Assembly: GCF_000190535.1 (NCBI RefSeq)
Contig: NC_015160.1
Coordinates: 4,216,001 to 4,280,000, forward strand
Source: Odoribacter splanchnicus DSM 20712
GTDB lineage: Bacteria > Bacteroidota > Bacteroidia > Bacteroidales > Marinifilaceae
Reading direction: 5' to 3'
Length of the DNA: 64,000 nucleotides
Each line of letters starts with the position of its first letter. The first letter of the stretch is position 1. Under the pieces are notes generated by a model, which was not told the origin of the DNA, searched no databases, and saw nothing but the letters and a program-made list of their open reading frames with translations. Position numbers and translations under genes: made by a program. This document shows, piece after piece, positions 29,208-45,834 of the stretch.

Positions 29208-29230
29208 ACCTGTTGGCGGAATTAAATTAT

Positions 29231-30212
29231 AGGTATAGGCGTTTAGTGCGCACTAACTTTATGGATTTTGCCTACTTTTGCAGGCATGGAACAACGCGAT
29301 AAATTCAAAGGAGTGGAATCAATCAAATTTTATAGTCGTTTTACCGATGATGCCTCATGCCTTGAGTACTTGTCCTCGATAAAGTGGGCAGACGGCTTCA
29401 AATGCAAGAAATGCGGTCATACCAATTATTGCAATGACAGATATCCCTATTCTCGCCGTTGTACACGCTGTAAGTATGACGAGAGCGTTACCAGCGGAAG
29501 CATGTTCGACAAGATAAAATTCCCGCTTGTCTACGCTTTCCACATAGCCTTCAAAATATCGACAAAGAAGAAAGGGATGTCCTCTTTGGAACTGGCGGAA
29601 GAATATTGTATGCGTCAGAAAACCGTATGGGAATTCAAGCGTAAGATACAGAAAGCCATGCGGAGCAGCGGTAATTATCCTCTTAAAGGAGAGGTACATG
29701 TCGATGAGTTTTATATCGGAGGAGAAGAGGAAGGAATCATTGGACGAAGCACGGAAGGCAAAAAGAAGCTTGTGATAGTCGCTTTGGAGATTGTCCGAGA
29801 CGGCGTGGGACGTGCGTATGCCCAAGTGATAGATGATGCTTCGGCAAGTTCTTTTCGTCCGTTCTTCGACAGATACATATCAAAGGACGCAAAAGTCATA
29901 ACCGATGAATGGTCAGGCTACCTGCCGTTAAAGAAAGATTATCCAAAATTGGAGCAACGCCCTTCGGATAAGGGCAAAGGGCATCCACAGATTCATATTC
30001 ACATCATGAACATAAAGGGATGGTTGCGTGGAATACACCACCATTGCTCCAAAGAGCATCTTCAAGGATACCTTGACGAGTATCATTTCAGGTTCAACCG
30101 CCGTAATAATATGGACACAATCTTCGATATGCTACTTCGTCGAATGATTTGTCAAAAGAAAACTGACTGATAATCAGCTGTGAATGTAGTGCGCTCTAAA
30201 CGCCTATACCTA
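29231..30212 (+). mobile_element. IS1595-family element nested in IS982 copy 1
   Basis: The ends AGGTATAGGCGTTTAG and its inverted counterpart (CTAAACGCCTATACCT) frame a single transposase gene. TAAATTAT occurs at 29223-29230 and again at 30213-30220, the 8-bp target duplication expected of this family. The right terminal base is ambiguous by one. The flanking TAAATTAT belongs to the IS982 leader. Confidence 0.85.
29286..30170 (+). CDS. IS1595-family (ISXO2-like) transposase
   Basis: A 294-residue transposase. An N-terminal zinc ribbon (CKKCGHTNYC ... CTRCKYDESVTSGSMFDKIKFPL) is followed by the ISXO2-like catalytic domain with HVDEFYIGG as the first acidic residue, VITDEWSGY as the second, and IHIMNIKGWLRGIHH near the third position. 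The C-terminus has YLDEYHFRFNRR, which is typical. A TACTTTTG box lies just upstream at 29273-29280. The start chosen is the ATG at 29286 (MEQRDKF) rather than the upstream open frame. It appears intact and probably active. Confidence 0.88.
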   Translation: MEQRDKFKGVESIKFYSRFTDDASCLEYLSSIKWADGFKCKKCGHTNYCNDRYPYSRRCTRCKYDESVTSGSMFDKIKFPLVYAFHIAFKISTKKKGMSSLELAEEYCMRQKTVWEFKRKIQKAMRSSGNYPLKGEVHVDEFYIGGEEEGIIGRSTEGKKKLVIVALEIVRDGVGRAYAQVIDDASASSFRPFFDRYISKDAKVITDEWSGYLPLKKDYPKLEQRPSDKGKGHPQIHIHIMNIKGWLRGIHHHCSKEHLQGYLDEYHFRFNRRNNMDTIFDMLLRRMICQKKTD

Positions 30213-30304
30213 TAAATTATAAAAGATTTATGTTTAAAAAGTTGTGCATATTGTTGATATTTAGTAAATTAAAGGTGACTAAACTTTTAATAGACAAATA
30301 TCGT

Positions 30305-31204
30305 ATGCACAACTTATATGCAATATTCGCAAAATTACTGAACATATGCAAGCAAATTGCCGGCAATTTAGTCAATGAATCCGGGAATGTACCAAGACGA
30401 GGAGTCGTCCCTAAATTCTCAGACCTTGAAGTAGTGGCTTTGAACATGGCATCAGAGGCTGTTGGTATTGACAGTGAGTCGCTGTTGTTTGCAAAGCTAC
30501 AGGAATATAGGGTTGAAATACCCAACCTTATTTCCCGCCGACAATACAATGACAGGCGTAAAATAACTTCCTCCCTATGTAATGCAATCCGAGAAAGAAT
30601 GGTTTCTAAAATGGATGGTGGTGAAGACTATTTCTGTATTGATTCGAAACCGATAGAAGTATGTCGTATTGCCCGTTCCAAACGTTGCAGTATGGGAAAG
30701 AAGGATTTTAGAAAAGCACCTGGGGTAGGATACTGCGCATCACAAAGCATGTATTATTATGGGTGTAAACTCCATGCAGTCTGCGGGTTAAGTGGTATCA
30801 TCCATTCCTTTGACCTCACTAAGGCAAGTGTGCATGACATTCATTACCTGAAGGATGTGAAAGTGGATTATAGTAATTGTACAGTCATAGGGGACAGAGG
30901 ATATATAAGTGCCCAAGTGCAATTGGATTTGTTTGAAACTGCCAATATCAGATTGGAGGTACCATACAGATGTAATCAAAAAGAATGGAAGCCAACATTC
31001 CCAGCTTTTGCCAAAGCGAGAAAAAGAATTGAAACCCTATTCTCGCAATTGTGTGACCAGTTTATGATTATAAGGAATTATGCGAAAGATACAGATGGAT
31101 TGTTTGCCCGGATTATTGGGAAGATTAGCGCACTTACAATCCTTCAATATATTAACTACAAAAATGAAAAGCCTATTGGCAGAGTTAAATATGCGCTATT
31201 TTAA
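30305..31204 (+). CDS. IS982-family transposase (copy 1)
   Basis: A 299-residue DDE transposase. The catalytic residues are suggested by FCIDSKPIEVC, VIGDRGYIS and the KARKRIETLFSQL segment with the final Glu. It aligns throughout with the transposase at 45942-46847 but differs at many positions, so the two copies are different members of the family rather than recent duplicates. The ATG at 30305 (MHNLYAIF) corresponds to the start of copy 2. The gene is complete despite the IS1595 element inserted upstream of it. Confidence 0.9.
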   Translation: MHNLYAIFAKLLNICKQIAGNLVNESGNVPRRGVVPKFSDLEVVALNMASEAVGIDSESLLFAKLQEYRVEIPNLISRRQYNDRRKITSSLCNAIRERMVSKMDGGEDYFCIDSKPIEVCRIARSKRCSMGKKDFRKAPGVGYCASQSMYYYGCKLHAVCGLSGIIHSFDLTKASVHDIHYLKDVKVDYSNCTVIGDRGYISAQVQLDLFETANIRLEVPYRCNQKEWKPTFPAFAKARKRIETLFSQLCDQFMIIRNYAKDTDGLFARIIGKISALTILQYINYKNEKPIGRVKYALF

Positions 31205-31231
31205 TTCCGCCAACAGGTCATGCTAATAAAA

Positions 31232-31636
31232 CTATATAAAGTTTTCGTTGTCGGCACTGAATGTAGCCGTGCATACCACCTTGCCTGTTCCTACGTTCGT
31301 AACCTGGAAGGTGTAATCCCCTTGCCAGGCCTCGCTTTTGAGCGAATCGAATGCTTTCCGGCAAGCCTCGTAAACCTGTTTGTCACATTCTTCTATCGTA
31401 CCTTTCTTGGTGAAGAGCTTGCCGGTGATACCGAGGGCTGACTGGAAGGCGTTCTCTATTTTCCCCATCTCTTCGAGAAAGTCGGGGTGTGAGGCCGACA
31501 TGCTGGAGAAGCCGTAGGTGTAAGTCACTTCCGTCACAGGATCGTCATCATCGCTGCAAGCGGTGAAGGTGAAAGTAAGGATGGCGACAGCCATCATCGT
31601 CAGCAGTGCTGACATTTTTTTGATTGAACTTTTCAT
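31232..31636 (-). CDS. Small lipoprotein in the position expected of a DGR reverse transcriptase
   Basis: A 134-residue protein with a clear lipoprotein signal (MMAVAILTFTFTACSDDDD) and a short mature domain of unknown family (FSSMSASHPDFLEEMGKIENAF ... GDYTFQVTNVGTGKV). It starts about 50 bases beyond the DGR template repeat on the same strand and stops 13 bases before the right end of IS982 copy 1. In related DGRs the reverse transcriptase gene normally follows the template, so this position is notable. Its role in the cassette is unknown. Confidence 0.7.
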   Translation of the reverse strand: MKSSIKKMSALLTMMAVAILTFTFTACSDDDDPVTEVTYTYGFSSMSASHPDFLEEMGKIENAFQSALGITGKLFTKKGTIEECDKQVYEACRKAFDSLKSEAWQGDYTFQVTNVGTGKVVCTATFSADNENFI

Positions 31637-31687
31637 TTTGATTTATTGTTTTTGAAATTTACAATACTTCGGTAAATTTTTATTGAA

Positions 31688-31815
31688 AAAGCTAAGACCG
31701 GACGCACGTAACTATTTCTGTTGTTCTTATTGTTGTTGTTCACGTTGCCGTTGTTCACATTCACATAAAGAGCGTTGTTCGCCGGATTGTTGTAGAACTC
31801 CGAGGAGGACCAGTA
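31688..31815 (-). repeat. DGR template repeat (TR), 128 bp
   Basis: On the minus strand this segment reads as an Asn-codon-rich copy (many AAC/AAT) of the C-terminal ends of the two target genes. It aligns gap-free with 32421-32548 and 34166-34293. All differences, 21 and 20 by my count, lie at positions where this copy has A on the sense strand and include A to G, A to C and A to T changes; no G, C or T of the template is changed. That is the hallmark of adenine-specific mutagenic retrohoming. It is non-coding or only incidentally open (a 79-codon frame at 31633-31872). Confidence 0.95.
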
Positions 31816-31936
31816 AATGTTGTCTGTTTTTGTCTTTGCGAGCCTCCCTGCACGAGGAAAGCCTGCCGACAACCCTTTTTCAATAATAAACAGTTCGCTT
31901 CGGGAAGCCTTGACCGCCCGAATCCCGACTGATAAA

Positions 31937-32311
31937 TCATTGCCTTTTATCTTCCTGTTTCTTCATTCCGCGTTCGTTATATTGTTTCCAGCTCGTAGCC
32001 TGCTTGCCTATCTTCTCCAACAGCAGCCCGAACGAGGCGTATTTGCGCTCGGTAATGACCTTCTGCTCCACACATACGCGGAAAAGCATCTGCAACATGC
32101 GGTAACGGTCGAGAAATTCGGTCAATACGCCCACTTTTTCATAGCTGCTGTTCGCCTTGTAAATCAGAGAAAGCATATCCAAAGTCAAATCCACCATACG
32201 GCTGCCCATACTGTAGCGGAAGAAGCGCGGAAAATCCTGCGTCAGGATCAACAGGTTGTTCAACAACCGGTAAGTGTCGCGGTATAGGGGTAATTCTTCG
32301 GATAATGCCAT
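31937..32311 (-). CDS. avd: Avd-like accessory variability protein of a DGR
   Basis: A 124-residue all-helical protein of the four-helix-bundle family that includes Avd, the partner of DGR reverse transcriptases. It has the typical opening ELPLYRDTYRLLNNLLILTQ and the core FPRFFRYSMGSRMVDLTLDMLSLIYKAN, and is basic at the C-terminus. Avd binds the template RNA and the reverse transcriptase and is needed for cDNA synthesis. I take the ATG at 32311 (MALSEEL); the longer frame from 32386 runs into the hairpin region after the first variable repeat. The order target, target, avd, template on one strand is that of known DGRs, but the reverse transcriptase is missing. Confidence 0.88.
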   Translation of the reverse strand: MALSEELPLYRDTYRLLNNLLILTQDFPRFFRYSMGSRMVDLTLDMLSLIYKANSSYEKVGVLTEFLDRYRMLQMLFRVCVEQKVITERKYASFGLLLEKIGKQATSWKQYNERGMKKQEDKRQ

Positions 32312-32337
32312 AACTCGATTTTTCAAAAATTTTTCCG

Positions 32338-32384
32338 ACCCGCTTCGCGGGTATTCAGCCTTTATCAACGAGCGGCTACGCCGC
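32338..32384 (-). promoter_or_regulatory. Paired hairpins downstream of variable repeat 1
   Basis: On the sense strand GCGGC-GTA-GCCGC (32372-32384) and then ACCCGC-GAA-GCGGGT (32338-32352) follow the end of variable repeat 1 by about 36 and 68 bases. Identical hairpins follow variable repeat 2 but not the template. Hairpin or cruciform structures after the variable repeat are known to mark the target in DGR retrohoming. Confidence 0.65.
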
Positions 32385-32416
32385 AAATAGATAAATAGAT
32401 TGAATAGGTAAATAGG

Positions 32417-33982
32417 TCAGAAAGCCAAGACCGGACGCACGAAACTACTTCTGCTGTACTTATAGCTGCGGAACACGTCGCCGTTGCGCACACTCACATA
32501 AAGAGCGCGGCGCGCCGGATAGTCGTAGAACTCCGAGGAGGACCAGTACCAGTCAGACTTTAAGCCTGATACCACTGTCTTGCCTTCAAACAAAGAAGCG
32601 CGGTTTTGATAAACATTCCACATCTGGCCGATGGAGGGCAAAAACCAGCCGGTGCTGTTGGCAGGGGACGGGACTTTGTGCGCATAATCCACAACGGCAT
32701 AGTAGGTGGCAGGATAACCGGAATCTTCGGTGGCATTCAACTTGTCCTTGCCGCCGGCAGCGGTGATGATTTTCTGTGTCCAGGCGTAGCCGCTCCAGTC
32801 GATGTCAGGTGCAGAGTAATTGTTCTGTTTTTTTCCGCTTCCATCCGTGGGGCAGCAACCCAACTCGGTTCCGTAAACGCCCCACTTACAATAACCGTTT
32901 GTGGCATCCTGCAAGGCAACGGCATAGCCGTGGCACTTCTGCTGACCGATACCGGTGGCGGAGTAATCGGAGGCATCGTTTTCGTGATGACCGGCATGGA
33001 ACACGATGGCGATAACGCTTGCTTTCTGTTCTTCGGTCAAAGTTTCGTCTTTGCCTACAATATTGCCGTCGGCAAGGAGGTAGTCCCCTACTTGCAAATT
33101 GTGATCTTTGTCAATCGTCGGTGCTCCGTCCACCTTATAGGTCTTGTATGAGCTTACGCTGATATTGTTCGGGGTGATGAAAAACTCCTTCTTGCCGTCG
33201 GCATAGCTGCCGGTGAGGGTTACGGTATTGCCTTGTCCGGGACGGACGAAGTAGCGGTATGTGCCGTCCGTATTGCGGCAGGGCTTGGCCTCTCCACTGA
33301 AATCGGCTGTAGTAGCAATCACATAGTCGGGAATGGAGGTGTCGGTGAACTTATACACCGTCTTGGGCATTTCGACTACGGCGAGTGCCATGCGGTGGGT
33401 CATGGAGAATGAGAGCGAGAGCTTGCCGTCGGCTTTGCTTCCCGAGCCCGTGGCGGTCATGAGGTCGGAGGCTGTGTAGCCTTGCGTGTAGTCGCTCTGA
33501 TCAGCTTCCGGCTGCCAGTCATTGATAAGCGTGGCGAAGAAATCGCCATCGCTCGTGGTGTCGGTGGCATTTACCTTGCCCGCCATCTTCGCTGTCTCTT
33601 GATAGGGATAGTAGAGGAAATACTTCTCGCCCGCCATTCCGCCGGCAAGGGTTACGCCCGCTTCGGGTTGCCAGGTAAGACTGCCGTTCGTGCCTGCTGT
33701 GGCGGTGAGTTTCACATTGTCATAGACTATCGCCCCATTGCGCACAAGGTAGAGTCCGCAGGCGTCACTGGCGGTAAACTCGGTACGGTAACCGTCCTCG
33801 GTAGCACGGGTAGCGGCTTTCTGCGAGCCGTCAGCCGAAGTTGTCAGGGCATAGCCGCCGTCGGTGATGGTGATGGCGAGCGGTGCGGCATTGTCAGCAC
33901 CGGGCAGGGGAAGCTCCTCCTGCGTGCAGCCGGTCAGCAGCAGTGCCGCCGCCCAAAGGGTATGTAGGATATTTCGTTTCAT
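32417..33982 (-). CDS. DGR target protein 1: fimbrillin-like lipoprotein with variable lectin-like C-terminus
   Basis: About 521 residues. A lipoprotein signal (LWAAALLLTGC) precedes a fimbrillin/Mfa-like N-terminal region (about residues 20-330). The C-terminal domain of about 190 residues is of the DUF1566/C-type-lectin-like kind, with GWFLPSIGQMWNVYQ and DWYWSSSEFY. The last 43 residues are encoded by variable repeat 1 and end in SFVRPVLAF. Varied residues are Asp, Tyr, Arg, Ser and Phe where the template encodes Asn. By analogy with pilus-tip adhesins it would be surface-exposed and bind a variable ligand. The ATG at 33982 is preferred to the GTG at 33988. Confidence 0.88.
   Translation of the reverse strand: MKRNILHTLWAAALLLTGCTQEELPLPGADNAAPLAITITDGGYALTTSADGSQKAATRATEDGYRTEFTASDACGLYLVRNGAIVYDNVKLTATAGTNGSLTWQPEAGVTLAGGMAGEKYFLYYPYQETAKMAGKVNATDTTSDGDFFATLINDWQPEADQSDYTQGYTASDLMTATGSGSKADGKLSLSFSMTHRMALAVVEMPKTVYKFTDTSIPDYVIATTADFSGEAKPCRNTDGTYRYFVRPGQGNTVTLTGSYADGKKEFFITPNNISVSSYKTYKVDGAPTIDKDHNLQVGDYLLADGNIVGKDETLTEEQKASVIAIVFHAGHHENDASDYSATGIGQQKCHGYAVALQDATNGYCKWGVYGTELGCCPTDGSGKKQNNYSAPDIDWSGYAWTQKIITAAGGKDKLNATEDSGYPATYYAVVDYAHKVPSPANSTGWFLPSIGQMWNVYQNRASLFEGKTVVSGLKSDWYWSSSEFYDYPARRALYVSVRNGDVFRSYKYSRSSFVRPVLAF
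32421..32548 (-). repeat. DGR variable repeat 1 (VR1), 128 bp
   Basis: It aligns without gaps to the template at 31688-31815. I count 21 differences, all at template A on the sense strand. It ends two bases before the stop triplet at 32417-32419, so it covers the very C-terminus of target protein 1. Conserved flanks are YWSSSEF at the 5' side and RPVLAF at the 3' side. Confidence 0.95.
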
Positions 33983-34081
33983 TGTCACACTTTTTATTTT
34001 AACTTTACGTTACTTGTTTTTATCTTCCTTGCGGGGCAAAGACTGCAAGCGGCCGTTGCCACAATTCCGTTTGTAAATCCG

Positions 34082-34128
34082 ACCCGCTTCGCGGGTATTC
34101 AGCCTTTATCAACGAGCGGCTACGCCGC
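34082..34128 (-). promoter_or_regulatory. Paired hairpins downstream of variable repeat 2
   Basis: ACCCGCTTCGCGGGT at 34082-34096 and GCGGCTACGCCGC at 34116-34128, identical to the pair after variable repeat 1. The template has no such pair after it. Confidence 0.65.
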
Positions 34129-34161
34129 ATAATAGATAAATAGGCTGAATAGGTAAATAGG

Positions 34162-35796
34162 TCAGAAAGCCAAGACCGGACGCACGTAACTACCCCTGCT
34201 GCTCTTACGGTAGTAGTACACGTCGCCGTCGCCCACACTCACACAAAGAGCGTAGTTCGCCGGATTGCGGTAGAACTCCGAGGAGGACCAGTACCAGTCA
34301 GACTTTAAGCCTGATACCACTGTCTTGCCTTCAAACAAAGAAGCGCGGTTTTGATAAACATTCCACATCTGGCCGATGGAGGGCAAAAACCAGCCGGTGC
34401 TGTTGGCAGGGGACGGGACTTTGTGCGCATAATCCACAACGGCATAGTAGGTGGCAGGATAACCGGAATCTTCGGTGGCATTCAACTTGTCCTTGCCGCC
34501 GGCAGCGGTGATGATTTTCTGTGTCCAGGCGTAGCCGCTCCAGTCGATGTCAGGTGCAGAGTAATTGTTCTGTTTTTTTCCGCTTCCATCCGTGGGGCAG
34601 CAACCCAACTCGGTTCCGTAAACGCCCCACTGACAATAACCGTTTGTGGCATCCTGCAAGGCAACGGCATAGCCGTGGCACTTCTGCTGACCGATACCGG
34701 TGGCGGAGTAATCGGAGGCATCGTTTTCGTGATGACCGGCATGGAACACGATGGCGATAACGTTCTTACCGTTCTCCGGCTGCGGCTTGGTCTCTGCCCA
34801 CTCCATCGTGCCGTCGGCATAGAGCTTGCGCAGGCCACCGTCTCTCCAGGTGCCGTCGGAGTAGTAATAGTCGCCGATTTTCGGTTCTGTTTCCGTGCCG
34901 TCATAGGTGATGGTCACGCCCACATTCTCGCTGCCGCCGGCGTTCCACGTTCCGCCCTTGGCTGCGGTCACCTCTATGCCACTGGCTTTCACGGTGATGG
35001 TGTAGGCATACCGCTTGCCACCGAAAAACCCAAATTTGCCGGCAGCTTCTGTTTCGGGAGTGTAGGTAAAGTCATTGCTGCCTATGCTGATTCGGATGAG
35101 CGGCTTGCCCGTCATATCCTGCGGCGGCACTAACGCCTCGTATTTCTTCGTTGCGGCATCGTAATAGGGCTTTATCTCGCCGTCCGATTGGTCACCCGGT
35201 GATACCAAGCCGGCGGTTGAGTGCGTTAGCGGGTCTCCGAAAATGGTGACGGTCGCACCCTCCAACTCCTCTTCCGTAATGCCTTCGCCAGCTTTGAGAA
35301 TTACTTCGATTTTCGCCATGCGGTGGATGAAACGGAGATTTATGGCTTGGTCATAACGCCCTATGGCACTGGCGTACAGGACATCGAAAGCGGCGTACCC
35401 GCCACTTTGGTCGGAAATATCCGTTTCCGATTCTATGTCCGGGGTCCATGCACTGACGCGGGCTTCATCGGTGTTCTTCCAATAGAAGGCATTATCGGCA
35501 TCCTTCGGGCTTGCATTGCCCGATGCGTCCATCACGTATGTTTTGTTACCAAACACGCCTTCCAGTGACACTCTAATCTCCTCGCCGCCCGTCCACGCAT
35601 CCTTACCTCCGGCGCGGGTCTGCGGCTGCGCCACCTCCGCCGTCAGTTGCAGCGGGTACTTGCCGTCGGGCAGGGGCGCGGTGCTTTCATCCTCACTGCT
35701 ACAGGAAGCGAGCACCCCACAGATGAGCATCATAACCGGCAACCAGCCGCCGATGCGCGGCCACGGCCTTCTCGCTATGTTCCTTATTATTTTCAT
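34162..35796 (-). CDS. DGR target protein 2: fimbrillin-like lipoprotein with variable lectin-like C-terminus
   Basis: About 544 residues. A signal peptide ends in a lipobox (LICGVLASC). The N-terminal region (about residues 30-320) is fimbrillin-like, with a TRAGGKDAWTGGEEIRVSL segment and WNAGGSENVGVTITYD typical of Mfa2/FimA-family domains. The C-terminal lectin-like scaffold is almost identical to that of target 1. The last 43 residues come from variable repeat 2 and end in SYVRPVLAF. The frame opens at 35856; the ATG at 35796 (MKIIRN) places the signal correctly. It lies between a fimbrillin gene and target 1 on one strand, so the three probably form one pilus operon. Confidence 0.87.
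   Translation of the reverse strand: MKIIRNIARRPWPRIGGWLPVMMLICGVLASCSSEDESTAPLPDGKYPLQLTAEVAQPQTRAGGKDAWTGGEEIRVSLEGVFGNKTYVMDASGNASPKDADNAFYWKNTDEARVSAWTPDIESETDISDQSGGYAAFDVLYASAIGRYDQAINLRFIHRMAKIEVILKAGEGITEEELEGATVTIFGDPLTHSTAGLVSPGDQSDGEIKPYYDAATKKYEALVPPQDMTGKPLIRISIGSNDFTYTPETEAAGKFGFFGGKRYAYTITVKASGIEVTAAKGGTWNAGGSENVGVTITYDGTETEPKIGDYYYSDGTWRDGGLRKLYADGTMEWAETKPQPENGKNVIAIVFHAGHHENDASDYSATGIGQQKCHGYAVALQDATNGYCQWGVYGTELGCCPTDGSGKKQNNYSAPDIDWSGYAWTQKIITAAGGKDKLNATEDSGYPATYYAVVDYAHKVPSPANSTGWFLPSIGQMWNVYQNRASLFEGKTVVSGLKSDWYWSSSEFYRNPANYALCVSVGDGDVYYYRKSSRGSYVRPVLAF
34166..34293 (-). repeat. DGR variable repeat 2 (VR2), 128 bp
   Basis: It aligns without gaps to the template. I count 20 differences, all at template A on the sense strand. 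The pattern of changes differs from that in variable repeat 1, so the two were diversified independently. Confidence 0.95.
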
Positions 35797-35916
35797 ATTG
35801 TCTTTATTTATTTCGTTTTGTGCCACTGCCCGTTGCGACGCGGGCTGCCGCACCATTTATTATATATGGCGTGCCTCCGTCTTACGCCTGATGCACGGCA
35901 GTGGCTTTCAGACACA

Positions 35917-36948
35917 CTACATTTTTGCATCACCCGCATGGCTACCACCGTCGTTCCAGTTTTCGATGGTGCTTCCGCTAAGGGTCAGCCCCGTCTTCTT
36001 CACCGTGATGGTGTAGGTATAAGAATAACCGGCCTCCAACGCGGGTTTGATCATGTCCTTGTTGGAGTAGCTCTGGTATTCCTCGTCATCGGGAGATATC
36101 TCAAGCACCAAAGCGTTGGCGAGTGTCTGCGGGAGCAGGATCATGGTGAAAGTCATCACGCCCGTGGCGGCGTCAAAGGTTGCCACGCACTTGTCCGTGG
36201 CCGTCTTCGGGGCACCGGTGCACTGGCGTAACATCCAGTCGCTCACAACGCTGCCCGCGGTCGCGGCGGTACCGGTCTTCACATCGAACGTTCCCTCGTG
36301 AACCAGGCCGCCCAGCTTGTAGTCGGCGAATTCCAGCACGGCAGTGTCGTCGAAACCGTCGGTGTTCGACACCTGCACCTTGAGGATAAGACGGGCCATC
36401 TTGTGCTTGAAGGAGCAGTCGCTGCCGCCCGCGGCGGGGTTGTCCGTGAAGCTGACGGTCGGGCTGTCTTTATCGGCCTTGGCTCCCGTGGCATGGATGT
36501 AGTCCACCTTCTCCTGTTCCGTGGTCGTGGGCTGGTTGCTTGTATTTACCGTAATCTTCCCGTCTGTACCAGGCAGGGTGGAGGCGTTTGCGCCCGATGC
36601 GTAAGGCGCGTAGGCGGCAAAAGTAAACTCGAGGAAAGCGTCCTCGAAGAAGATGCCGCCACCCGCCGTCATCGGGGTGAAGTCCGCGTTGGTGCCGGTA
36701 CTCGTGGTCGCGTATCCCACGTTCTTGTACTTGCCGCCCATGGTCGTGGTCGTGCCAGGGGCATCCACCACCATCACGCCGATTCGGTCGGCGTTCCACC
36801 CGTTGTCCACAGCACGGGTCTTCGGCCCGCTCACGCCTGCCGTGATTCGTGCTTCCACCGGATTGTTCTGTACCTCGTTCTCTTGTGTACACGCAGCCAA
36901 TAGCGTTGCCGCTGCTGCAATAATGAAAAACCTCATGTTCATTGTCAT
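35917..36948 (-). CDS. Fimbrillin family lipoprotein (Mfa1/FimA-like)
   Basis: A 343-residue protein with a lipoprotein signal (FIIAAAATLLAACTQENE) and the fimbrillin opening ITAGVSGPKTRAVDNGWN. It continues with FEFTFAAYAPYA-like beta strands and the C-terminal YSYTITVKKTGLTLSGSTIENWNDGG pattern seen in Bacteroidales fimbrillin-A-associated proteins. Such proteins polymerise into pili by donor-strand exchange after cleavage by a trypsin-like protease. It is first in the operon with the two DGR targets, so the variable proteins may be tip subunits of the pilus it builds. The GC content is higher here than in the lipoprotein genes upstream. Confidence 0.82.
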   Translation of the reverse strand: MTMNMRFFIIAAAATLLAACTQENEVQNNPVEARITAGVSGPKTRAVDNGWNADRIGVMVVDAPGTTTTMGGKYKNVGYATTSTGTNADFTPMTAGGGIFFEDAFLEFTFAAYAPYASGANASTLPGTDGKITVNTSNQPTTTEQEKVDYIHATGAKADKDSPTVSFTDNPAAGGSDCSFKHKMARLILKVQVSNTDGFDDTAVLEFADYKLGGLVHEGTFDVKTGTAATAGSVVSDWMLRQCTGAPKTATDKCVATFDAATGVMTFTMILLPQTLANALVLEISPDDEEYQSYSNKDMIKPALEAGYSYTYTITVKKTGLTLSGSTIENWNDGGSHAGDAKM

Positions 36949-37170
36949 AATCTTGTTTTTTTTATTAAAAATTTATCGAAGAACCGATTTGGAAGATTTG
37001 GCATCAACTTATTGTTATTCGCTTTAATTAGGATTACAATTATAGAAAAAACTTTTTATTATAATGATGAAAAGAAAGCCATCAGTTCCAATATAAAATA
37101 TCGTGGCTGTCGTATTTGACGATATTCAGGTAATTGTTCATCCAATTAATTTCAACCACAGCTTACGACC

Positions 37171-37230
37171 TCTTTCCAAAAAGCATACTACCTTTTCTTG
37201 AAAAGCATACTACCTTTTTGAAAAGAGGTC
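37171..37230. promoter_or_regulatory. Tandem 22-bp repeats inside an inverted repeat (possible AraC-type operator)
   Basis: GCATACTACCTTTT occurs at 37183 and again at 37205, exactly 22 bases apart. The pair is framed by GACCTCTTT on the left and AAAGAGGTC on the right. Direct half-sites about two helical turns apart are typical of AraC-family operators, and a TPR-AraC regulator is encoded at 38975. The rest of the gap 36949-37257 shows no gene. Confidence 0.45.
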
Positions 37231-37257
37231 ATACTTGCGTTGATCAGTAATGGGATT

Positions 37258-38118
37258 TTACTCTGTACTTTTCACGAAGATAGTTTCTCCCTTGTCAAGT
37301 ATGTTTTTGATTTCCTTGCCGCCGCTTTGTATCTTGCAAAAGCTTATATCCTCGCCTTGTACATCCATTATCTTCAACTTGCCTACTTGAGTCTTAGCTT
37401 CTTTCCCTGCAATCGTTTTTACAGTGTAGGCAGTTAGATGAAGTCCTTTGTATGCGCCTAAATTAGTTCCGAGGTCGATATACACCTCTTTTTGCTTGTC
37501 TTTGCTTTGTCGGGCACTTTCCAATATTGTGCCATAGATTGGATACTTGCGATTACAATATCCTCCTACGTAAGCTGACAACTTGCGCAAAGTAGAGGTA
37601 ATCGCACTTTCCTCTGTTTCTATCCATGCAACATCTACGTCGGAAATCTTAAACATCGGACTAGCTATCACTTCCTCGGTTTGTGAATCTTTGAATTGCA
37701 GGGTAATTCCCACCATGGCTTTATAGTATGTGTTAACACCATTCTTGGTAGTAGTTATTGATTCCGTTTTAGTCGTGGTGGAAATGTTATTTATTGTTGC
37801 ATCCACATAATAGTCAAAAGTGGCATTCGTTTGTTCACCAATATTCCCCATGTCGGTAGCGATTGTGCGAAAGCCGGAAGTCAATCCTCTCACAATAGCT
37901 GCCCTAACAGCATCCTTGTATTGTGGTTGTTGTGTAGTATTCTGCCCAGTAATCAAGACGTTCGCAATAGAGCCTAATGCGCTTCCAACCGTTTCCTTTC
38001 CCTCTTTCGGAGTATAGGTGAAGTTGCGCACGCCTAATGCGATGATACGATTGCGGTCTCCAGCCCAAGATACTCCGATTGATAGAAGAAGGACTAATGT
38101 GATGATGCTGCTTCTCAT
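37258..38118 (-). CDS. Exported protein of unknown function (CsgG/LpoB-like features)
   Basis: A 286-residue protein with a cleavable signal peptide (IITLVLLLSIGVSWAGD). The mature part alternates strands and helices and has segments such as RIIALGVRNFTYTPKE, FDYYVDATINNISTTTK and AMVGITLQFKDSQTEEVI. These recall the CsgG/LpoB-type periplasmic fold used in curli secretion and cell-wall regulation, but I cannot claim membership. It follows the lipoprotein gene at 38122 by three bases, forming a two-gene operon that reads divergently from the TPR-AraC regulator. Confidence 0.65.
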   Translation of the reverse strand: MRSSIITLVLLLSIGVSWAGDRNRIIALGVRNFTYTPKEGKETVGSALGSIANVLITGQNTTQQPQYKDAVRAAIVRGLTSGFRTIATDMGNIGEQTNATFDYYVDATINNISTTTKTESITTTKNGVNTYYKAMVGITLQFKDSQTEEVIASPMFKISDVDVAWIETEESAITSTLRKLSAYVGGYCNRKYPIYGTILESARQSKDKQKEVYIDLGTNLGAYKGLHLTAYTVKTIAGKEAKTQVGKLKIMDVQGEDISFCKIQSGGKEIKNILDKGETIFVKSTE

Positions 38119-38121
38119 GTA

Positions 38122-38700
38122 TTATTGCTTTAGATATTCGATGGTGAAATAACTATCTTGCGCATTCTTTTTCTTATCTAAAACATAAGAATAATAAGTA
38201 TTAGAACTCTCTTTTTTGATATATTCTTCTACTTTGTCTTTTCCTACAGATAAATATGAATTAGTACTACCAGATGTAGCAGAATCAACAGTCTTTTTGT
38301 TTTGATCAAAGATAGCGACTGTGATTAATAGCGAATGACTACTAAATTGATAAGACTTCTTCTCTAATTCCACATTTGCTTTTAACGTACGTTTGATGGA
38401 AATCAATCCTTTGGCAGGCAAACTACTAAAATTGATTTGTTTTTTCCATTTTGTAGCAGTGATAGCTTCTGTCTTAGTCGCTCCATTCTCATCTGTGTAC
38501 TCCGCAATCATGTCGCATATAGACAGTTCATCCTCCGTTGCTGCATACAAAAAAACAATAGCCCCTGTTGTTGGAACTTTAGTTTCCTCTACAGGGATAT
38601 TTTTGTCATCATCATCACTGCTGCAACTGACTAAACCGGCAAATAACATAACTATCAAACCGAGCATCGAGGCTCTAAAAGTCATTTTCTTGTAATTCAT
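38122..38700 (-). CDS. Lipoprotein of unknown function
   Basis: A 192-residue protein with a lipoprotein signal (LGLIVMLFAGLVSCSSDDDD) whose Asp-rich start after the cysteine is a common surface-export signal in Bacteroidetes. The mature domain is mainly beta with no recognised family. It is first in an operon with the CsgG/LpoB-like gene. A TATGTTTG -7 box lies at 38790-38797. The divergent regulator gene at 38975 is a likely controller. Confidence 0.7.
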   Translation of the reverse strand: MNYKKMTFRASMLGLIVMLFAGLVSCSSDDDDKNIPVEETKVPTTGAIVFLYAATEDELSICDMIAEYTDENGATKTEAITATKWKKQINFSSLPAKGLISIKRTLKANVELEKKSYQFSSHSLLITVAIFDQNKKTVDSATSGSTNSYLSVGKDKVEEYIKKESSNTYYSYVLDKKKNAQDSYFTIEYLKQ

Positions 38701-38789
38701 AATTTGGAATTTTAAACGTTAATATTTAATGTATGTGTCTGCAAGAATAAATAACGCCAAATAAACAAGCAAGCGATTGTTTCGTTTAA

Positions 38790-38797
38790 CAAACATA
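38790..38797 (-). promoter_or_regulatory. Putative -7 box (TATGTTTG) of the lipoprotein operon
   Basis: An exact TAnnTTTG match on the minus strand, 90 bases upstream of the start at 38700. Confidence 0.5.
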
Positions 38798-38944
38798 AGA
38801 TAGATTTACTGAATTACTCAGAATACACTCTTTCGCTTTTTCAGCTGCCATTCCCGATTATTAATTTCCCTCCCAAATCTTCATAATCTTACCCAGATAT
38901 TACCAAAAAAGAAGTAAAGCATCCTTAATTTTAGATATAAGTTG

Positions 38945-38952
38945 TACTTTTG
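38945..38952 (+). promoter_or_regulatory. Putative -7 box (TACTTTTG) of the TPR-AraC regulator
   Basis: An exact TAnnTTTG match 23 bases before the ATG at 38975. The divergent gap 38701-38974 also holds the opposite promoter. Confidence 0.6.
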
Positions 38953-38974
38953 ATAATCATAACAACATAGTATA

Positions 38975-40654
38975 ATGAAAAGGCATTTGCATAGAAAAAT
39001 GAGAATATGGTTATGTTCGCTTGTTTGCGGATTGTGGGCGATGCCTTTGCTCGCCAACCGGTCAGCCTTGCCCGATAGCCTGATAACAGAAGATAAAGTG
39101 TACGAGTTTACTTTTTCGGACACACCTTTGGCTGAACGCATCATGATGGAACTACGGAAGAAGGGAAAGCAAGCTACTCATGAACTCGATATAACGGAAG
39201 GTGACTTGTATTATAACACCGGCCGCTTCATCATAGCTGCCAGCTTCTATAAAAACGCCCTTGCTGCAAAGGCGGTGAAGCGAGATGAGCAGATGACAAT
39301 GAAGCTGCTTCATCGTTTGATTTCATGCTATGATGGCTTATATGATGAAAAGCGAAAAGCAGAGACGGTAAAGCTTTTAATGCAAAATGCCCAAGAAGCT
39401 GGAGACAGTGGTATGGAGTCGATTGCCCTATTTTATTTAGGCAAGAGCCTTCATGAACAAGGCACGAAAGAACGTGGTTATGTCTATATGTTGCAAGCCA
39501 CAGAGATGATGGAGAAATCGCATTACGACAGGAAATATGACAATTTGCGTGCAAACTGCAACGATTTGCTTATCTGCTACGAGCGTGATAAAAGATACGG
39601 GGAAGCCCTTCAAGTACTTGATAAACTTGAGAAATACTTGTATGCCAAAACTCCAGGCGAGGCTGAAATGGAAGGACTCTATGAGCAAGAAAAATGCAAA
39701 TGGCTTGCCCATCGTGCTGTCGTATGTTCCAAATTAGGGAAAGAAAAAGAAGCGAATGAGGCATATTCTGAATTTCAGAAGATGGGGCGTATCAATCGCC
39801 GGTACGCCTACTTGGTTGTGCCTTATCTCTTTGACTTGCATCGTTATGATGAAATCGTGGATATGTGCAAGCAACGTGAAACAGAGATGATGCATAAGAA
39901 AGATACTATCAACCTCTACATGTCTTCCACCTTAAAATTCTACGGCATGGCATATCAGGGATTGGAACAATATGACAAGGCGGCAAGCTATTTTGAGCGA
40001 CTAAGCGTATTGCGGGACAGCCTGCGTGTAAGGGAGTTGCGCAGTTCCTCACAAGAGTTGTCCATCATCTACGATGTCAAAGACAAGGAGGCTCAAATCA
40101 CTCACCAACGTTGGGAGCTTGTGATAGCCATCTGCATCTTGATTGCTTTAGCTATCATTGGTTGCGTGCTGGGATATAACAACCGCATCATCAGAAAGAA
40201 GAACATTTCTTTGGTTGCCAACGTGAAAGAGGCGATGAGATATAAGGAAGAGCTTGAGAAGTTAAACCGTAGTACTCTGTCCGAAAATATTGCATGGAAT
40301 GACGATGAGGATCCAGACTTACTGCTGTTCGAGCAAATCAAAGTAAAAATCATTGATCAGAAATTCTTCCTCGACAACACTTTCTCCCGCAAGGCGCTCA
40401 TGGGCGAATTCAATATTCCTGCTAACAAGTTCGCCGGCTTGTTCCGTCAGTTCACAGGTAAAAGTTTCAGCGAATATATCAACGATTTGCGCATCGAATA
40501 TGTAGCGGAACTTTTGCTTTCGGGTAAATACGCCAGTGTAGAAGAACTATTGAAAGAATGCACTTTCATCTCCTCCACCTCGCTGTACCGTCTCTTTACA
40601 AAGAAATACGGCATGACTCCACAAAAGTTCTTGCGGAATGCACGGTTATGTTAA
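38975..40654 (+). CDS. TPR membrane regulator with AraC-type DNA-binding domain
   Basis: A 559-residue one-component regulator. An N-terminal signal/anchor (LCSLVCGLWAMPLLA) is followed by a TPR-like helical sensor (about residues 60-370), a membrane span (LVIAICILIALAIIGCVLGY, about 385-405), and an AraC/XylS helix-turn-helix pair at the C-terminus (FSRKALMGEFNIPANKFAGLFRQ and TSLYRLFTKKYGMTPQKFLRN). The first helix set probably faces the periplasm and senses a surface signal. It is divergent from the two-gene lipoprotein operon and near the fimbrillin-DGR operon, so either may be its target. The tandem repeats at 37183 and 37205 are a candidate site. Confidence 0.82.
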   Translation: MKRHLHRKMRIWLCSLVCGLWAMPLLANRSALPDSLITEDKVYEFTFSDTPLAERIMMELRKKGKQATHELDITEGDLYYNTGRFIIAASFYKNALAAKAVKRDEQMTMKLLHRLISCYDGLYDEKRKAETVKLLMQNAQEAGDSGMESIALFYLGKSLHEQGTKERGYVYMLQATEMMEKSHYDRKYDNLRANCNDLLICYERDKRYGEALQVLDKLEKYLYAKTPGEAEMEGLYEQEKCKWLAHRAVVCSKLGKEKEANEAYSEFQKMGRINRRYAYLVVPYLFDLHRYDEIVDMCKQRETEMMHKKDTINLYMSSTLKFYGMAYQGLEQYDKAASYFERLSVLRDSLRVRELRSSSQELSIIYDVKDKEAQITHQRWELVIAICILIALAIIGCVLGYNNRIIRKKNISLVANVKEAMRYKEELEKLNRSTLSENIAWNDDEDPDLLLFEQIKVKIIDQKFFLDNTFSRKALMGEFNIPANKFAGLFRQFTGKSFSEYINDLRIEYVAELLLSGKYASVEELLKECTFISSTSLYRLFTKKYGMTPQKFLRNARLC

Positions 40655-40901
40655 GCAGAAGAAAAAAGTAAGTAAAACAACGGTTGCTGTTTTTTGCTGA
40701 AAAATTAAAAGTTAAACAATAGAACCGGCAAAAGCTGGTTCGAAAACACTAAAGAGGTCATTGAAATGTTGTCAAAAACGAATGGTTAAGCATGAAGAAA
40801 TGTACTGAAAAAAGAGTGCTAACCTGCTGATAATAAAGGTGGAAAGTATTGCATAATTCGTTGATTTTTAGTAAATTAGAAGTCTCCCAACTCTTCTGAT
40901 T

Positions 40902-42115
40902 ATGACTAAAGAAACACTCCTTATGCAATACCAATCCGAGTGCCTATCGGCTCTCAAATCAGTCGTGAATATACACAAACCTTTTGAAAAAACGTTCATG
41001 GATGCAATGAAATTATTCATGGCCATCCCTGATCGTATAAACTTCCTCCAATTGGGTAGGTATGGACGTTTTTCGGAACAGACCTACCGTAACCTTTTTG
41101 AGCATGAAACTTTCGACTGGTTTGCGTTCAACGGCTCTATCATCAGCAAGCATCTCACAGGTAAAAGAAAAGCCATCGCCATCGATCCTTCCTATATCCC
41201 CAAATCAGGCAAGAAGACACCTTGGATAGGTTACTTCTGGTCTGGTTGTGCAGGAGAGTACAAGCGTGGATTGGAAATCATGGGCATCGGTGTCATAGAC
41301 ATCGACAACCATGAATGCATGACTTTAGGTTCCATTCAGACACCGGATTGTAAAACCTTGGATAATATGGACAAGAACCTCGTTGACTGGTACAGCAGCT
41401 ATCTTATCAGTAGAAAAGACAAGATACAGAGCATATCAAGAACGGTGGTTGCAGACGCATTCTTTTCCAAGGAAACATTCATAACGCCTATGTGTGAGAA
41501 CGATTTCCATGTCATCAGCCGCTTTCGGAATGACGTAATCCTGTACTATCCGACATTGGAACAGAAAACAGGAAAACGTGGCCATCCAAAGTGGTTTGAC
41601 GGAAGAATCGACTTTGCCAATCTGGATCTGACCCGGTGCAAGGAATACGAGGTGAACAAAGGAAAGCTATACGGATTGAGGGTATATGCAAAAGCTCTCA
41701 AAAGGTATGTTTCCTTAGCCATCTGGTATCCGATGGACGGGAGGACAGACAAGTGGCAGCTTTACTTCTCTACAGACGATTCGATGGATGGACGGGAGGT
41801 TCTGGATTATTACAGAACCAGGTTCCAATTGGAATTTTGAGAGATGGTAAGCAACATGCAGGAATCACCAACTGTCAGTCAACCGACTTCAGAAAGTTGG
41901 ATTTTCACTTCAATGCATCGCTTGCTGCTGTCAACTTGGCCAAAGCGGCATGTAAGAGGCTCGGAATAACCTATTCCATATCCTCCTGCAAGTCTTTTAT
42001 ACACAATGCTTATATGCTTGAACGATTTATTTGCGTGTTCGGGATTAACCCAGACATGCAAGTTATTGACAAACTTTTCAAAGAACTCATTTTATTTACT
42101 GCCAGAGCCGCTTAG
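40902..42115 (+). pseudogene. IS4-like transposase gene broken by a one-base frameshift
   Basis: The first frame (40902-41840) carries AIAIDPSYIPKSG and VVADAFFSKE, the first two catalytic aspartates, and runs to YYRTRFQLEF with the catalytic Glu, then hits TGA. The second frame continues the protein as LRDGKQHAGITNCQSTDFRKLDFHFNAS to 42115. One extra T in the four-T run at 41835-41838 would join them into about 400 residues. I find no convincing inverted repeats around it. The break may be decay, a sequencing error or translational frameshifting. The gap 40655-40901 before it shows only AT-rich sequence. Confidence 0.75.
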
Positions 42116-42128
42116 GCGTGGCTATTTT

Positions 42129-44258
42129 TTAACGAACTATTGAATTTATAAATTCTGACATATTGGCTGAATAAAGATTGCCATAGTTTTCAGCATTATA
42201 CACCATAACATGGCTTCCGACAGTATTGATGAACAGCCGGTAATAGAGGTCGCGCATAGCCACCTCCTTGTTATCGGTTATTTGTTCGATAAAGGTGGAG
42301 GTGAAACGGTTGCTCATCCACACTTTCATCTCTGAGTTGAAGACATCAGCCTTGGATGTTTCGTCGCCGTTGGCCGCAGTGACGAACAGCATCCCGGGGA
42401 TGCCCTCGCACTGCTTCATCACACCGCCCGAAAAACAAGCCTCCACCATCATGAGAAGTTTACGGTAACGCCTTTTGCGGTTCATATCCTCAAAAACAGA
42501 AGACAGTTTATCGCCTGTCATGGCGTAAGCTTCCTCATCCCAACACATGGCCCCCGGCACACCGTGTCCGCTCCAGAAAACGAACAGGTTGTCGTTCTCA
42601 GTAGATTCGATTACCGTGGGCAGTTTTTCGCTTTTTTCGCCACTGAGAATGGCAAGTATATCTTTTGTATTCAACGATGACATACGATAATCAATCTCTA
42701 CATTTTCGTATACATTGTTTCCCCCGATAGTCACCTGTATGACTCCCTTGTTGGGATTTGATATATTATCGGCTATGTCATCCTCGACAATGAGAATGAT
42801 ACGGTCGTCGGTATATCCGGCTTGTCTGAGCTGCTGATAGATAGCGAGCACATCTGCCTGATGGCGGTAATTGGTCCATTCCTTGGAGGAAGCGACAAGG
42901 AGTGCCCAGTTGCCGGTATGTGCAGGGTAATTGAATTCTCCTGAATTGTCGAAATCCTGCATCCGGAAGGCTTTCCAGTTCCAACCGGCAAGTGTCGCAT
43001 CCGTGCGGTTCCCCCCGTCGCTGGTGTTATAGTCAAGGATGATGTACTGTCCGTTGTAAACCTTGAAATTATAGTAAGTGGTGGCAAGTACATTGGTAAA
43101 CACCTTGGCATCGAACCTTAAATGTCCTGACGCTCCACGGACATAGGGCGACTTTCCGGCAGCGAGCGCATCCACCACAAGCCCCATATCCTCACCTGTC
43201 CAGCTGCCCATGTTCAAGCCTTCACCCGAAACAACGGCCCTTAATGATTTCTGTAACGACAACTCCGGTCTGAACTGCTGGTACCATGCGGCATAGCCGA
43301 TGAGCATAGCGGCATCGTAGAGCTGAGATTCTCCAAGAGTAGGCGTAGCATTGAAAAAGGTCCTGTAACTTACGTCAAACCCCGACTCAGGGTCGGCACC
43401 AAATGCGACTCCCTCTATGCCTTCGGCGGCATCACCGTGAATCTTGAGTACATCCGCACCGTAGGCGGTATCCGAAAACAACATCCGCGGTACACTGCGC
43501 CCGTTCAGACTTTGTGCTTTATGCGCTTCAAGCATCGGCTTCATCTCTTCTATTTCAGAGGGGATACATATCACATACTCTGCACCTGACTGCATGGCTT
43601 GGCGAGACACATCAGCTATATTGTCAGAGGTGTAAGCATAGCATCCCATGTTTTCCAAGCCCAGTTCGCGTGCTTGAAATGCGAACCAGTCAATGAACGT
43701 TTGTCCGTAACCGTCGTTCTCCTTGACCAAAAGTGCCACACTTTTACCCTCATAGTTAATCACCTTGGAGAGAAGCACCTCACATTGCGTAATGTCGGTC
43801 TCGGTCATCGCCCAAAGATAGCCTGTCGATGCGTATGCACGAACCAGTTGTTCGGCGGTGGCGAGAGTGAAGAATGTTTTGCCCACAATAGTCAGTTCCG
43901 CCGCGAGGATTGCCGCATTGGAAGAATACAGCCCGCCGATTACGGCATACACCTCGTCGTTGAATGCCAGCGACCGGGCAAGTTCCCGCACATCGGTCTT
44001 TGCCTCATCGTAGTATTCAAACTTTAACCTTATACCCGCTTCGTGGTTCTTGAATGCACGCTCAAAGTTGGTTGTAAACATTCCCAATGTCCTTTTCCAA
44101 TGCACATCAAGCCCTTTCTCCATGGGAAGCACCACGGCAACAACCTTCTCTGTCCACTGCTTGTTGTCAGGAGACAGGGAAGGCTCATCGTCCGAACAGC
44201 TCCACAGACCAATCAGGCAGAGGAGCGGTGCAATAAGTTTAATAACCACTTGTTTCAT
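42129..44258 (-). CDS. Periplasmic-binding-protein/legumain (C13) protease fusion lipoprotein
   Basis: About 709 residues. A lipobox (LIGLWSC) is followed by a type I periplasmic-binding fold like that of branched-chain amino acid receptors (about residues 40-400: VIGGLYSSNAAILAAELTIVGKTFF). A C13 cysteine-protease domain follows (about 470-690). The protease motifs are NWALLVASSKEWTNYRHQAD, FWSGHG (catalytic His about 570) and MMVEACFSGG (catalytic Cys about 613), counted from the upstream Met at 44273. The dyad looks intact. The combination suggests a ligand-controlled surface protease. Its start (ATG 44258, or 44273) overlaps the end of the BMP-like gene. Confidence 0.85.
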   Translation of the reverse strand: MKQVVIKLIAPLLCLIGLWSCSDDEPSLSPDNKQWTEKVVAVVLPMEKGLDVHWKRTLGMFTTNFERAFKNHEAGIRLKFEYYDEAKTDVRELARSLAFNDEVYAVIGGLYSSNAAILAAELTIVGKTFFTLATAEQLVRAYASTGYLWAMTETDITQCEVLLSKVINYEGKSVALLVKENDGYGQTFIDWFAFQARELGLENMGCYAYTSDNIADVSRQAMQSGAEYVICIPSEIEEMKPMLEAHKAQSLNGRSVPRMLFSDTAYGADVLKIHGDAAEGIEGVAFGADPESGFDVSYRTFFNATPTLGESQLYDAAMLIGYAAWYQQFRPELSLQKSLRAVVSGEGLNMGSWTGEDMGLVVDALAAGKSPYVRGASGHLRFDAKVFTNVLATTYYNFKVYNGQYIILDYNTSDGGNRTDATLAGWNWKAFRMQDFDNSGEFNYPAHTGNWALLVASSKEWTNYRHQADVLAIYQQLRQAGYTDDRIILIVEDDIADNISNPNKGVIQVTIGGNNVYENVEIDYRMSSLNTKDILAILSGEKSEKLPTVIESTENDNLFVFWSGHGVPGAMCWDEEAYAMTGDKLSSVFEDMNRKRRYRKLLMMVEACFSGGVMKQCEGIPGMLFVTAANGDETSKADVFNSEMKVWMSNRFTSTFIEQITDNKEVAMRDLYYRLFINTVGSHVMVYNAENYGNLYSANMSEFINSIVR

Positions 44259-45258: not shown

Positions 45259-45259
45259 A

Positions 45260-45808
45260 CTAATCAAACTTATGACCACATTCGGAGCATGTATATGGTC
45301 CGGATGCAAATGTTTTCCACTTATGACCACAATTGGGACATTTTTCAGTCCATCTTGCCGGGAAGTATTGGTCTATAGCAAGATTATCCCCGTCCATGTA
45401 TTCCTCCGGAACGATTACGACTGTCATGTCCGGTTCTTTGAAATTCTTGAGAGCATTGAACGAAACGGTGTAAAAGATACTTTCGTCCGAACCGGGTGTG
45501 AGTGAGATTCTGCCGCAGTTGTCAGGGAGTTTGACAGTGCGTTGCTTTACGTCCCACTGATCGAGAATGAACTTCTCACACACTCCATGGGCAGCCTCCT
45601 TTGAGTCTGCTACCAATATAAACCGGGCAGCATCATCCTTTTTCTGATAGAGATTTCCGGCATCAGCTTGGTCGACTATTATCTTGTCGATATTCTCCAA
45701 CATTTTTTCTCCAAACGGTCCTTGTGGCTCATCGTCGTTGCTGTAAGCAGTGAAAGCGAGCATTGCCATCACTGAAGCAAACATGATTGTTAAAAATTTC
45801 TTTACCAT
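45260..45808 (-). CDS. Exported zinc-ribbon protein of unknown function
   Basis: A 182-residue protein. The N-terminus is a signal peptide (FASVMAMLAFTAYSNDDE) of lipoprotein style in which the expected lipid-bearing cysteine is Tyr (TAC instead of TGC). The middle is a small mixed domain (FILVADSKEAAHGVCEKFILDQ), and the C-terminus is a zinc ribbon with CPNCGHKW and CSECGHKFD. It is first of three genes in the protease operon and ends one base before the BMP-like gene. An exported zinc ribbon is unusual. The function is unknown. Confidence 0.7.
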   Translation of the reverse strand: MVKKFLTIMFASVMAMLAFTAYSNDDEPQGPFGEKMLENIDKIIVDQADAGNLYQKKDDAARFILVADSKEAAHGVCEKFILDQWDVKQRTVKLPDNCGRISLTPGSDESIFYTVSFNALKNFKEPDMTVVIVPEEYMDGDNLAIDQYFPARWTEKCPNCGHKWKTFASGPYTCSECGHKFD

Positions 45809-45834
45809 AACAAGTTGTTTTTTAATTGATTGTT

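What the first reader, a model, noticed from the sequence alone, without database searches (positions are those of the whole stretch)
31688..34293. Diversity-generating retroelement with one template and two variable fimbrillin-like adhesins
Seen directly: three 128-bp minus-strand segments align with no gaps. Both variable copies differ from the Asn-rich template only where the template has A in the sense strand (21 and 20 differences by my count), with A changed to G, C or T and no template G, C or T changed. Known: this bias is the signature of DGR mutagenic retrohoming. The varied residues fall in the C-terminal end of a lectin-like fold on two lipoproteins with fimbrillin-like N-termini, and an Avd-like gene lies between targets and template. 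Inference: the cassette diversifies pilus-tip or surface adhesins.
Basis: partly seen in the sequence, partly recalled or inferred. Interest (0 to 1): 0.95.

Follow-up and report, generated by a model that had tools for sequence, protein, structure and literature searches.

The report
Adhesin-mutating retroelement lacking its enzyme
A gut bacterium carries two pilus-tip proteins whose binding ends were scrambled by a natural protein-evolving machine, but the copying enzyme that does the scrambling is missing here while a close relative keeps it, so the tips now look frozen.

Summary
Avd is real. Target 2 is a predicted two-domain type V tip pilin whose variable domain resembles Lcl. By size the genome is Odoribacter splanchnicus 1651/6T. 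Two relatives of another genus carry the same cassette on a conjugative element with RT (open in one, frameshifted in the other). Here homology stops 16 bp past TR, inside a 9-kb insert in an IS982-bounded composite transposon whose DGR-free form sits in the same relatives. One difference per VR is a template mutation, leaving 20 and 19. Homologues vary almost only at template-Asn sites. Best reading: a recently active, now stranded DGR. Inactivated DGRs, trans-acting DGRs and DGR-diversified tip pilins are in print.

The parts
31688..31815 (-). Template repeat (TR), Asn(AAC/AAT)-rich; position 123 (A) is a window-specific change
32421..32548 (-). Variable repeat VR1, 3' end of target 1; identical to VR1 of L018
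34166..34293 (-). Variable repeat VR2, 3' end of target 2; 17 differences from VR2 of L018
31937..32311 (-). Avd (124 aa), intact, identical at DNA level to that of G013
   Evidence: PF22296, PHROG 3206
32417..33982 (-). Target 1: lipoprotein, probable tip pilin (521 aa from ATG), Lcl_C-like C-terminus (25.2 bits, below Pfam cut-off)
34162..35796 (-). Target 2: lipoprotein tip pilin (544 aa), Mfa_like_1 N-terminus, Lcl-like C-terminal domain
35917..36948 (-). Fimbrillin-like (Mfa_like_1) pilin, probable stalk subunit
   Evidence: 175 bits
32334..32385 (-). Pair of small GC hairpins 37 and 69 nt after VR1; absent after TR
34078..34129 (-). The same hairpin pair 38 and 70 nt after VR2 (100% identical 52-nt block)
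31672..36978 (-). Cassette homologous to the conjugative-element DGR of G013 (98.8%) and G017 (93.8%); ends 16 bp past TR, before the RT gene
31672..40690 (.). About 9.0-kb insert missing from the same element in G013/G017 (empty site = window 31690|40691 within short homology)
29208..46861 (.). IS982-bounded composite transposon; 6-bp flanking repeat ATAATT (read by eye); DGR-free copy in G013 has its own 7-bp repeat
29223..30219 (+). IS1595-family IS nested in the left IS982
45837..46861 (+). Right-hand IS982-type IS (68% identical to the left one)
31232..31636 (-). Small lipoprotein gene that now occupies the place where RT stands in relatives; belongs to the transposon, not to the DGR

Best explanation
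It is the target-Avd-template part of a DGR that was carried on a Bacteroidales conjugative element, where RT (420 aa, LPIGNLTSQ and YVDD motifs) copied TR RNA with errors at A and the cDNA overwrote the ends of two tip-pilin genes (established DGR mechanism, inferred here from footprints). A fragment ending 16 bp past TR, thus without RT and the MutS-domain-I gene, came to lie inside an IS982 composite transposon (shown by the empty site), and this composite sits in the O. splanchnicus chromosome (supported by end repeats and a short flanking repeat). The order of those moves is inferred. In this strain the two tip adhesins are intact but their binding ends should no longer change on their own.
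For: A-only differences (P about 1e-12). Relatives G013 and G017, 99% identical to each other over some 61 kb, carry the same cassette with RT; Pfam supports RT, MutS_I, histidine kinase, NtrC-type regulator and integrase in G017 and TraG, relaxase, topoisomerase in G013. Homologues: of 120 taken from the capped list (274 hits, best 120 shown), 80 have an ungapped tail; mean entropy 3.04 bits at 15 template-Asn codons v 0.58 at 27 others; five of the 27 were fixed by my tail filter, without them about 0.71. RT not found: PF00078 gives three loci that look like group II intron proteins (by eye) and one prophage RT; a relative's RT protein finds only that prophage, 34%; MutS_I protein no match (no positive control); window profile scan without filters nothing of note. 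DGR-free copy of the transposon in both relatives. Recent loss: Avd 0 differences in 375 nt from G013; VR1 identical to L018 while VR2 differs at 17 sites against 13 background differences in 4,035 nt.
Against: A DGR-type RT exists elsewhere in the genome (prophage, C1:939 kb, IGNYLSQ motif, own TR/VR with 13 of 13 differences at A); action in trans is not excluded. The VR2 difference could be recombination with an unsampled allele instead of rewriting. In G017 the TR and VR1 share three non-A markers, but the VR1-gene/Avd/TR block there is a divergent lineage (180 of 969 nt in the VR1-gene N-terminal part), so common descent explains this as well as marker transfer. One isolate only.
Confidence: 0.83

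Rival explanations
1. Still active in trans: the prophage DGR RT at C1:939 kb copies this TR with the local Avd and keeps diversifying the tips.
For: An open RT frame with DGR-type motif and an A-biased TR/VR pair is present in the same genome; trans activity at incomplete DGR loci is argued for Thiohalocapsa (passages of PMC10907252).
Against: 34% identity to the cognate-type RT; its best phage matches, several of them named as crAss-like-type phages, are at about 42-53%, and it has its own unrelated TR.
Confidence: 0.07
2. A portable, non-autonomous DGR: the cassette stays on a composite transposon and is rewritten whenever an RT-bearing conjugative element enters the cell.
For: Avd and TR are nearly identical to those of G013 (0 of 375 nt and 1 of 128 nt); hairpins and both targets intact; DGR-free copies in other genomes show that the carrier moves.
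Against: No genome seen with both the stranded and the complete copy. G013's own RT is frameshifted. The TR point mutation is in neither VR, though it lies at the 3' edge where transfer may not reach.
Confidence: 0.08
3. Assembly artefact: RT was lost by misassembly of repeats in the finished genome.
For: The three repeats are similar enough to confuse assembly.
Against: Single finished chromosome; the sequence after TR continues into a transposon arm found at 99.8% in two other genomes, and of the 7.0 kb from the end of RT onward in L018 only a 279-nt stretch at 65% occurs in the genome.
Confidence: 0.02

Closest known systems
DGR-diversified type V tip pilins of gut Bacteroides (Macadangdang et al. 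2024; paper not held, known here from two passages of PMC12632263)
   Same: Tip pilins with a diversified C-terminal binding domain; DGR mechanism
   Different: Here RT is missing; host is Odoribacter; cassette sits on an IS982 composite transposon
DGR targets in human microbiome contigs (2014, PMC4159848, passages)
   Same: Lipoprotein targets, one with an Mfa2 domain, one with a DUF1566 domain likened to 4EPS; that survey also counted partial systems lacking RT
   Different: Metagenome contigs; no carrier or empty site in the passages seen
DGRs with inactivated RT but clean TR/VR (2012, PMC3521204, section 8 read)
   Same: TR/VR pair with only A changes although RT is dead; explained there as very recent loss
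   Different: Those are RT genes truncated by nonsense, IS insertion or frameshift; here RT is wholly absent and the cassette was relocated
Transposon-shaped, incomplete and trans-acting DGRs of Thiohalocapsa PB-PSB1 (passages of PMC10907252)
   Same: Incomplete loci, transposons as movers
   Different: Different targets; there matching DGR parts exist elsewhere in the genome for some loci
BPP-1 phage DGR (passages of PMC3240598)
   Same: TR/VR, hairpin after VR
   Different: Phage-type hairpins have 7-10 bp stems and 4-nt GRNA loops 4-34 bp after VR; here 5-6 bp stems, 3-nt loops, 37-70 nt after VR
BACOVA_04982 fimbrial protein, PDB 4eps
   Different: 16-21% identity; the high rmsd means the two domains do not superpose as one body

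Membership tests
Diversity-generating retroelement (complete, autonomous) | TR/VR pair with substitutions confined to template A | tested here: met
   21 of 21 and 20 of 20 differences at A; 20 and 19 after removing the template mutation
Diversity-generating retroelement (complete, autonomous) | DGR-type RT ((I/V/L)GxxxSQ) beside the TR | tested here: not met
   Absent from window; no close match in genome; open in G017, frameshifted in G013
Diversity-generating retroelement (complete, autonomous) | Accessory protein Avd | tested here: met
   PF22296 over cut-off, PHROG 3206; NCBIfam DivGenRetAVD 57.5 bits, under its cut-off of 80
Diversity-generating retroelement (complete, autonomous) | Target recognition hairpin after VR | tested here: inconclusive
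   Two short hairpins after both VRs, none after TR, but not of the phage geometry
Diversity-generating retroelement (complete, autonomous) | Mutagenic retrohoming takes place | not testable with these tools
   Footprints only
Type V pilus tip pilin | Lipoprotein with Mfa/fimbrillin-like N-terminal domains and a separate C-terminal binding domain | tested here: met
Lcl_C / C-type-lectin-like domain | Fold of the variable C-terminal domain | tested here: met
IS982 composite transposon | Outer IS inverted repeats starting AC and a direct repeat at the insertion | tested here: met
   ACC(T/C)GTTGGCGGAATTAA ends; ATAATT in the window, AGTCCAT in G013, read by eye; AC ends and a 7-bp repeat of IS1187 in passages of PMC7335449

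The most novel reading that the evidence does not exclude
The target-Avd-template module behaves as a portable, non-autonomous DGR: it spreads on ordinary transposons, stays fixed in a resident strain, and is reopened for a round of mutation only when an RT-bearing conjugative element passes through, so that adhesin evolution is switched by horizontal transfer.
Probability: 0.08. Interest if true: 0.7.

Novelty: new member of a known kind. Interest (0 to 1): 0.42.

Why it matters
The case shows, with an empty site and RT-bearing relatives, how a DGR can lose its mutator while the hypervariable adhesins it made survive and travel, and it warns that a perfect TR/VR footprint does not prove an active DGR. 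The type strain is in culture, so frozen versus active is directly testable.

Tried and rejected
23S rRNA intervening-sequence protein instead of Avd: no such family listed. RT hidden or divergent in the window: not found without filters. RT moved elsewhere by inversion: no cognate RT, MutS_I gene or downstream element in the genome apart from weak matches. Second fimbrial operon at C1:617.7-624 kb (L030) as further target: its two C-termini end RPVLAF, but no template was found for the first of them (the second was not searched) and the hairpins are absent. Viral and plasmid collections: no relative. First structure model failed (pLDDT 30.6). Natural marker transfer in G017 as proof of retrohoming: withdrawn, since common descent of a divergent block explains it too.

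Survey limits: one search listed 53 matches, 50 places after merging split hits; besides the window 39 were fetched and 10 were not, plus one locus (G031). With 13 earlier loci and the window, 54 loci were examined. 31 have a TR/VR pair. I dropped L062 (same values as L016, taken as a duplicate), L011 (615 nt after TR), L067 (pair found on both strands; 331 nt left in the Avd orientation), L078 (887 nt; RT 193 positions) and L097 (995 nt; RT 269 positions). Of the 26 left, 22 have an RT of 300 or more profile positions in one frame, 1 is frameshifted (L037), 1 truncated (L072), 2 have none (L082, window). Of the 23 loci without a pair, 6 have such an RT, 1 has it in two frames (L094), 1 a fragment (L018), 15 none, several of them on short contigs or with broken Avd. 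The set was found through Avd and mixes MAGs with isolates, so it is no rate.

Against a simple story: L018 is a MAG, so its deletion may be an assembly error; the L037 frameshift may be a sequencing error. Macadangdang et al. is not held. One search had no positive control.

Full report
Observation. The three 128-nt segments exist at the stated places and are returned as one family by a blind repeat search. All 21 TR-VR1 and all 20 TR-VR2 differences lie at template A; random placement would give this with P about 4e-13 and 2e-12. One correction: repeat position 123 is A only in the window TR; both window VRs and the eight VR/TR copies compared from L018, L037 (G013) and L039 (G017) have G. 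That is a template mutation, so 20 and 19 sites remain; 36 of these 39 lie in AAC/AAT codons.

Genes. On the minus strand, in order of transcription: a fimbrillin-like pilin (35917-36948), target 2 with VR2, target 1 with VR1, Avd, TR. Avd passes the Pfam bAvd cut-off and hits the PHROG Avd family, but is under the NCBIfam cut-off. A model of target 2 from 106 sequences (pLDDT 80.3, pTM 0.48) matches the Bacteroides ovatus fimbrial protein 4eps over both domains, Mfa3 at the N-terminus and the Legionella Lcl C-terminal domain at the variable end. Both VRs are followed by an identical 52-nt block with two small hairpins, TR is not; the geometry differs from the phage type.

The missing enzyme. 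No RT profile match of note in the window even without filters. In the whole genome PF00078 finds three loci that look like group II intron proteins (by eye) and one prophage RT; the RT of a Bacteroides timonensis relative (L009) finds only the prophage copy at 34%.

Relatives. In 56 genomes of the family, Avd occurs in 5; in G013 and G017, of another genus, it is 100% and 97% identical. There the operon starts earlier (DUF3575 protein, Mfa2 anchor) and continues after TR with RT, a MutS-domain-I gene, a histidine kinase and an NtrC-type regulator; a tyrosine integrase, TraG, relaxase and topoisomerase lie on the same element (family hits in G017; in G013; order). RT is open (420 aa) in G017 and frameshifted in G013. 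A Bacteroides MAG (L018) has a deletion that fuses the start of Avd to the end of RT. Phocaeicola sartorii (L008) keeps Avd and, by eye, a piece of a TR, but no RT in the 7 kb that follow. B. stercorirosoris (L010) has an Avd with a foreign end; its contig stops about 0.8 kb later, so RT loss cannot be judged.

How it got here. Window 29207-31690 and 40691-46862 are contiguous in G013 and G017 at 99.8%, while 31672-36978 matches their DGR, which lies about 32 kb away. So the window carries an insert of about 9.0 kb in an element that is DGR-free elsewhere. The element is bounded by IS982-type inverted repeats with a different short direct repeat in the window and in G013 (ATAATT, AGTCCAT). The DGR part ends 16 bp past TR; in G017 the RT start codon comes 41 nt after TR. 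Of the remaining 3.7 kb of the insert, 36979-39144 was not found in the 55 other family genomes; 39145-40690 was compared only with the fetched G013 and G017 stretches, without a match.

History of activity. The window's VR1 equals that of L018, while VR2 differs at 17 sites against 13 background differences in 4,035 nt: VR2 was probably rewritten, or exchanged, in one lineage before the loss. In G017, TR and VR1 share non-A markers that VR2 lacks; this fits template-to-target transfer, but its VR1-gene, Avd and TR form a divergent block (180 of 969 nt in the N-terminal part of the VR1 gene), so common descent explains it as well. G013 VR2 has one and G017 VR2 two differences at non-A template positions. 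Of 120 homologues taken, 80 have an ungapped tail; entropy is 3.04 bits at the 15 template-Asn codons and 0.58 at the other 27, or about 0.71 without the five positions fixed by my filter. The other 40 were not counted, and the templates of those lineages are unknown.

How common. In 392 genomes of the order, 38 have an Avd match. Of 54 Avd loci examined, 26 have a TR/VR pair and enough sequence after it; 22 have an RT in one frame, 1 frameshifted, 1 truncated, 2 none, the window among them (exclusions in Tried and rejected). RT loss with a clean TR/VR pair is thus uncommon but not unique, and inactivated RTs were reported in 2012 (PMC3521204 section 8).

Verdict. What it works like: a DGR that made two hypervariable tip adhesins. 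What it is: the non-autonomous remainder of one. Membership as a complete DGR fails on the RT. Diversified Bacteroides tip pilins (two passages of PMC12632263), inactivated DGRs and transposon-shaped or trans-acting DGRs (passages of PMC10907252) are in print. One search for DGR with Odoribacter listed five papers, of which I saw only passages of PMC12632263, so a first report in this host is not claimed.

Noticed in passing
L032:8771-12031 (G000 C1:938.8-942.0 kb): A prophage in the same genome has its own DGR: TR 10268-10389, VR 10625-10746 with 13 of 13 differences at A, RT with IGNYLSQ; the eight best phage matches are at about 42-53%.
   Followed up: partly
L030:7694-14250 (G000 C1:617.7-624.2 kb): A second fimbrial operon, 95% identical to the L018 operon over 3.5 kb, whose two tip proteins end in VR-like tails (RPVLAF) without hairpins or a template found for the first; an IS66-like gene (by eye) follows.
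   Followed up: partly
L039:12142-12618: A 158-aa protein with MutS domain I (PF01624, 27.7 bits) overlaps the end of RT; similar genes (by eye) sit next to Avd or RT in L009, L011, L012 and L015. Its role in the DGR is unknown to me.
   Followed up: no
window 42129-44273: Cargo of the composite transposon: a 714-aa protein with Peripla_BP_6 and Peptidase_C13 domains next to a PnrA-like lipoprotein.
   Followed up: no
window 36979-40690: 3.7 kb of unknown origin (AraC/TPR regulator, two small secreted proteins) fused upstream of the cassette; its first 2.2 kb is absent from 55 other family genomes.
   Followed up: partly
L010:7330-7480: Avd of B. stercorirosoris ends in foreign sequence that looks like a group II intron end (recognised by eye, not tested).
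   Followed up: no
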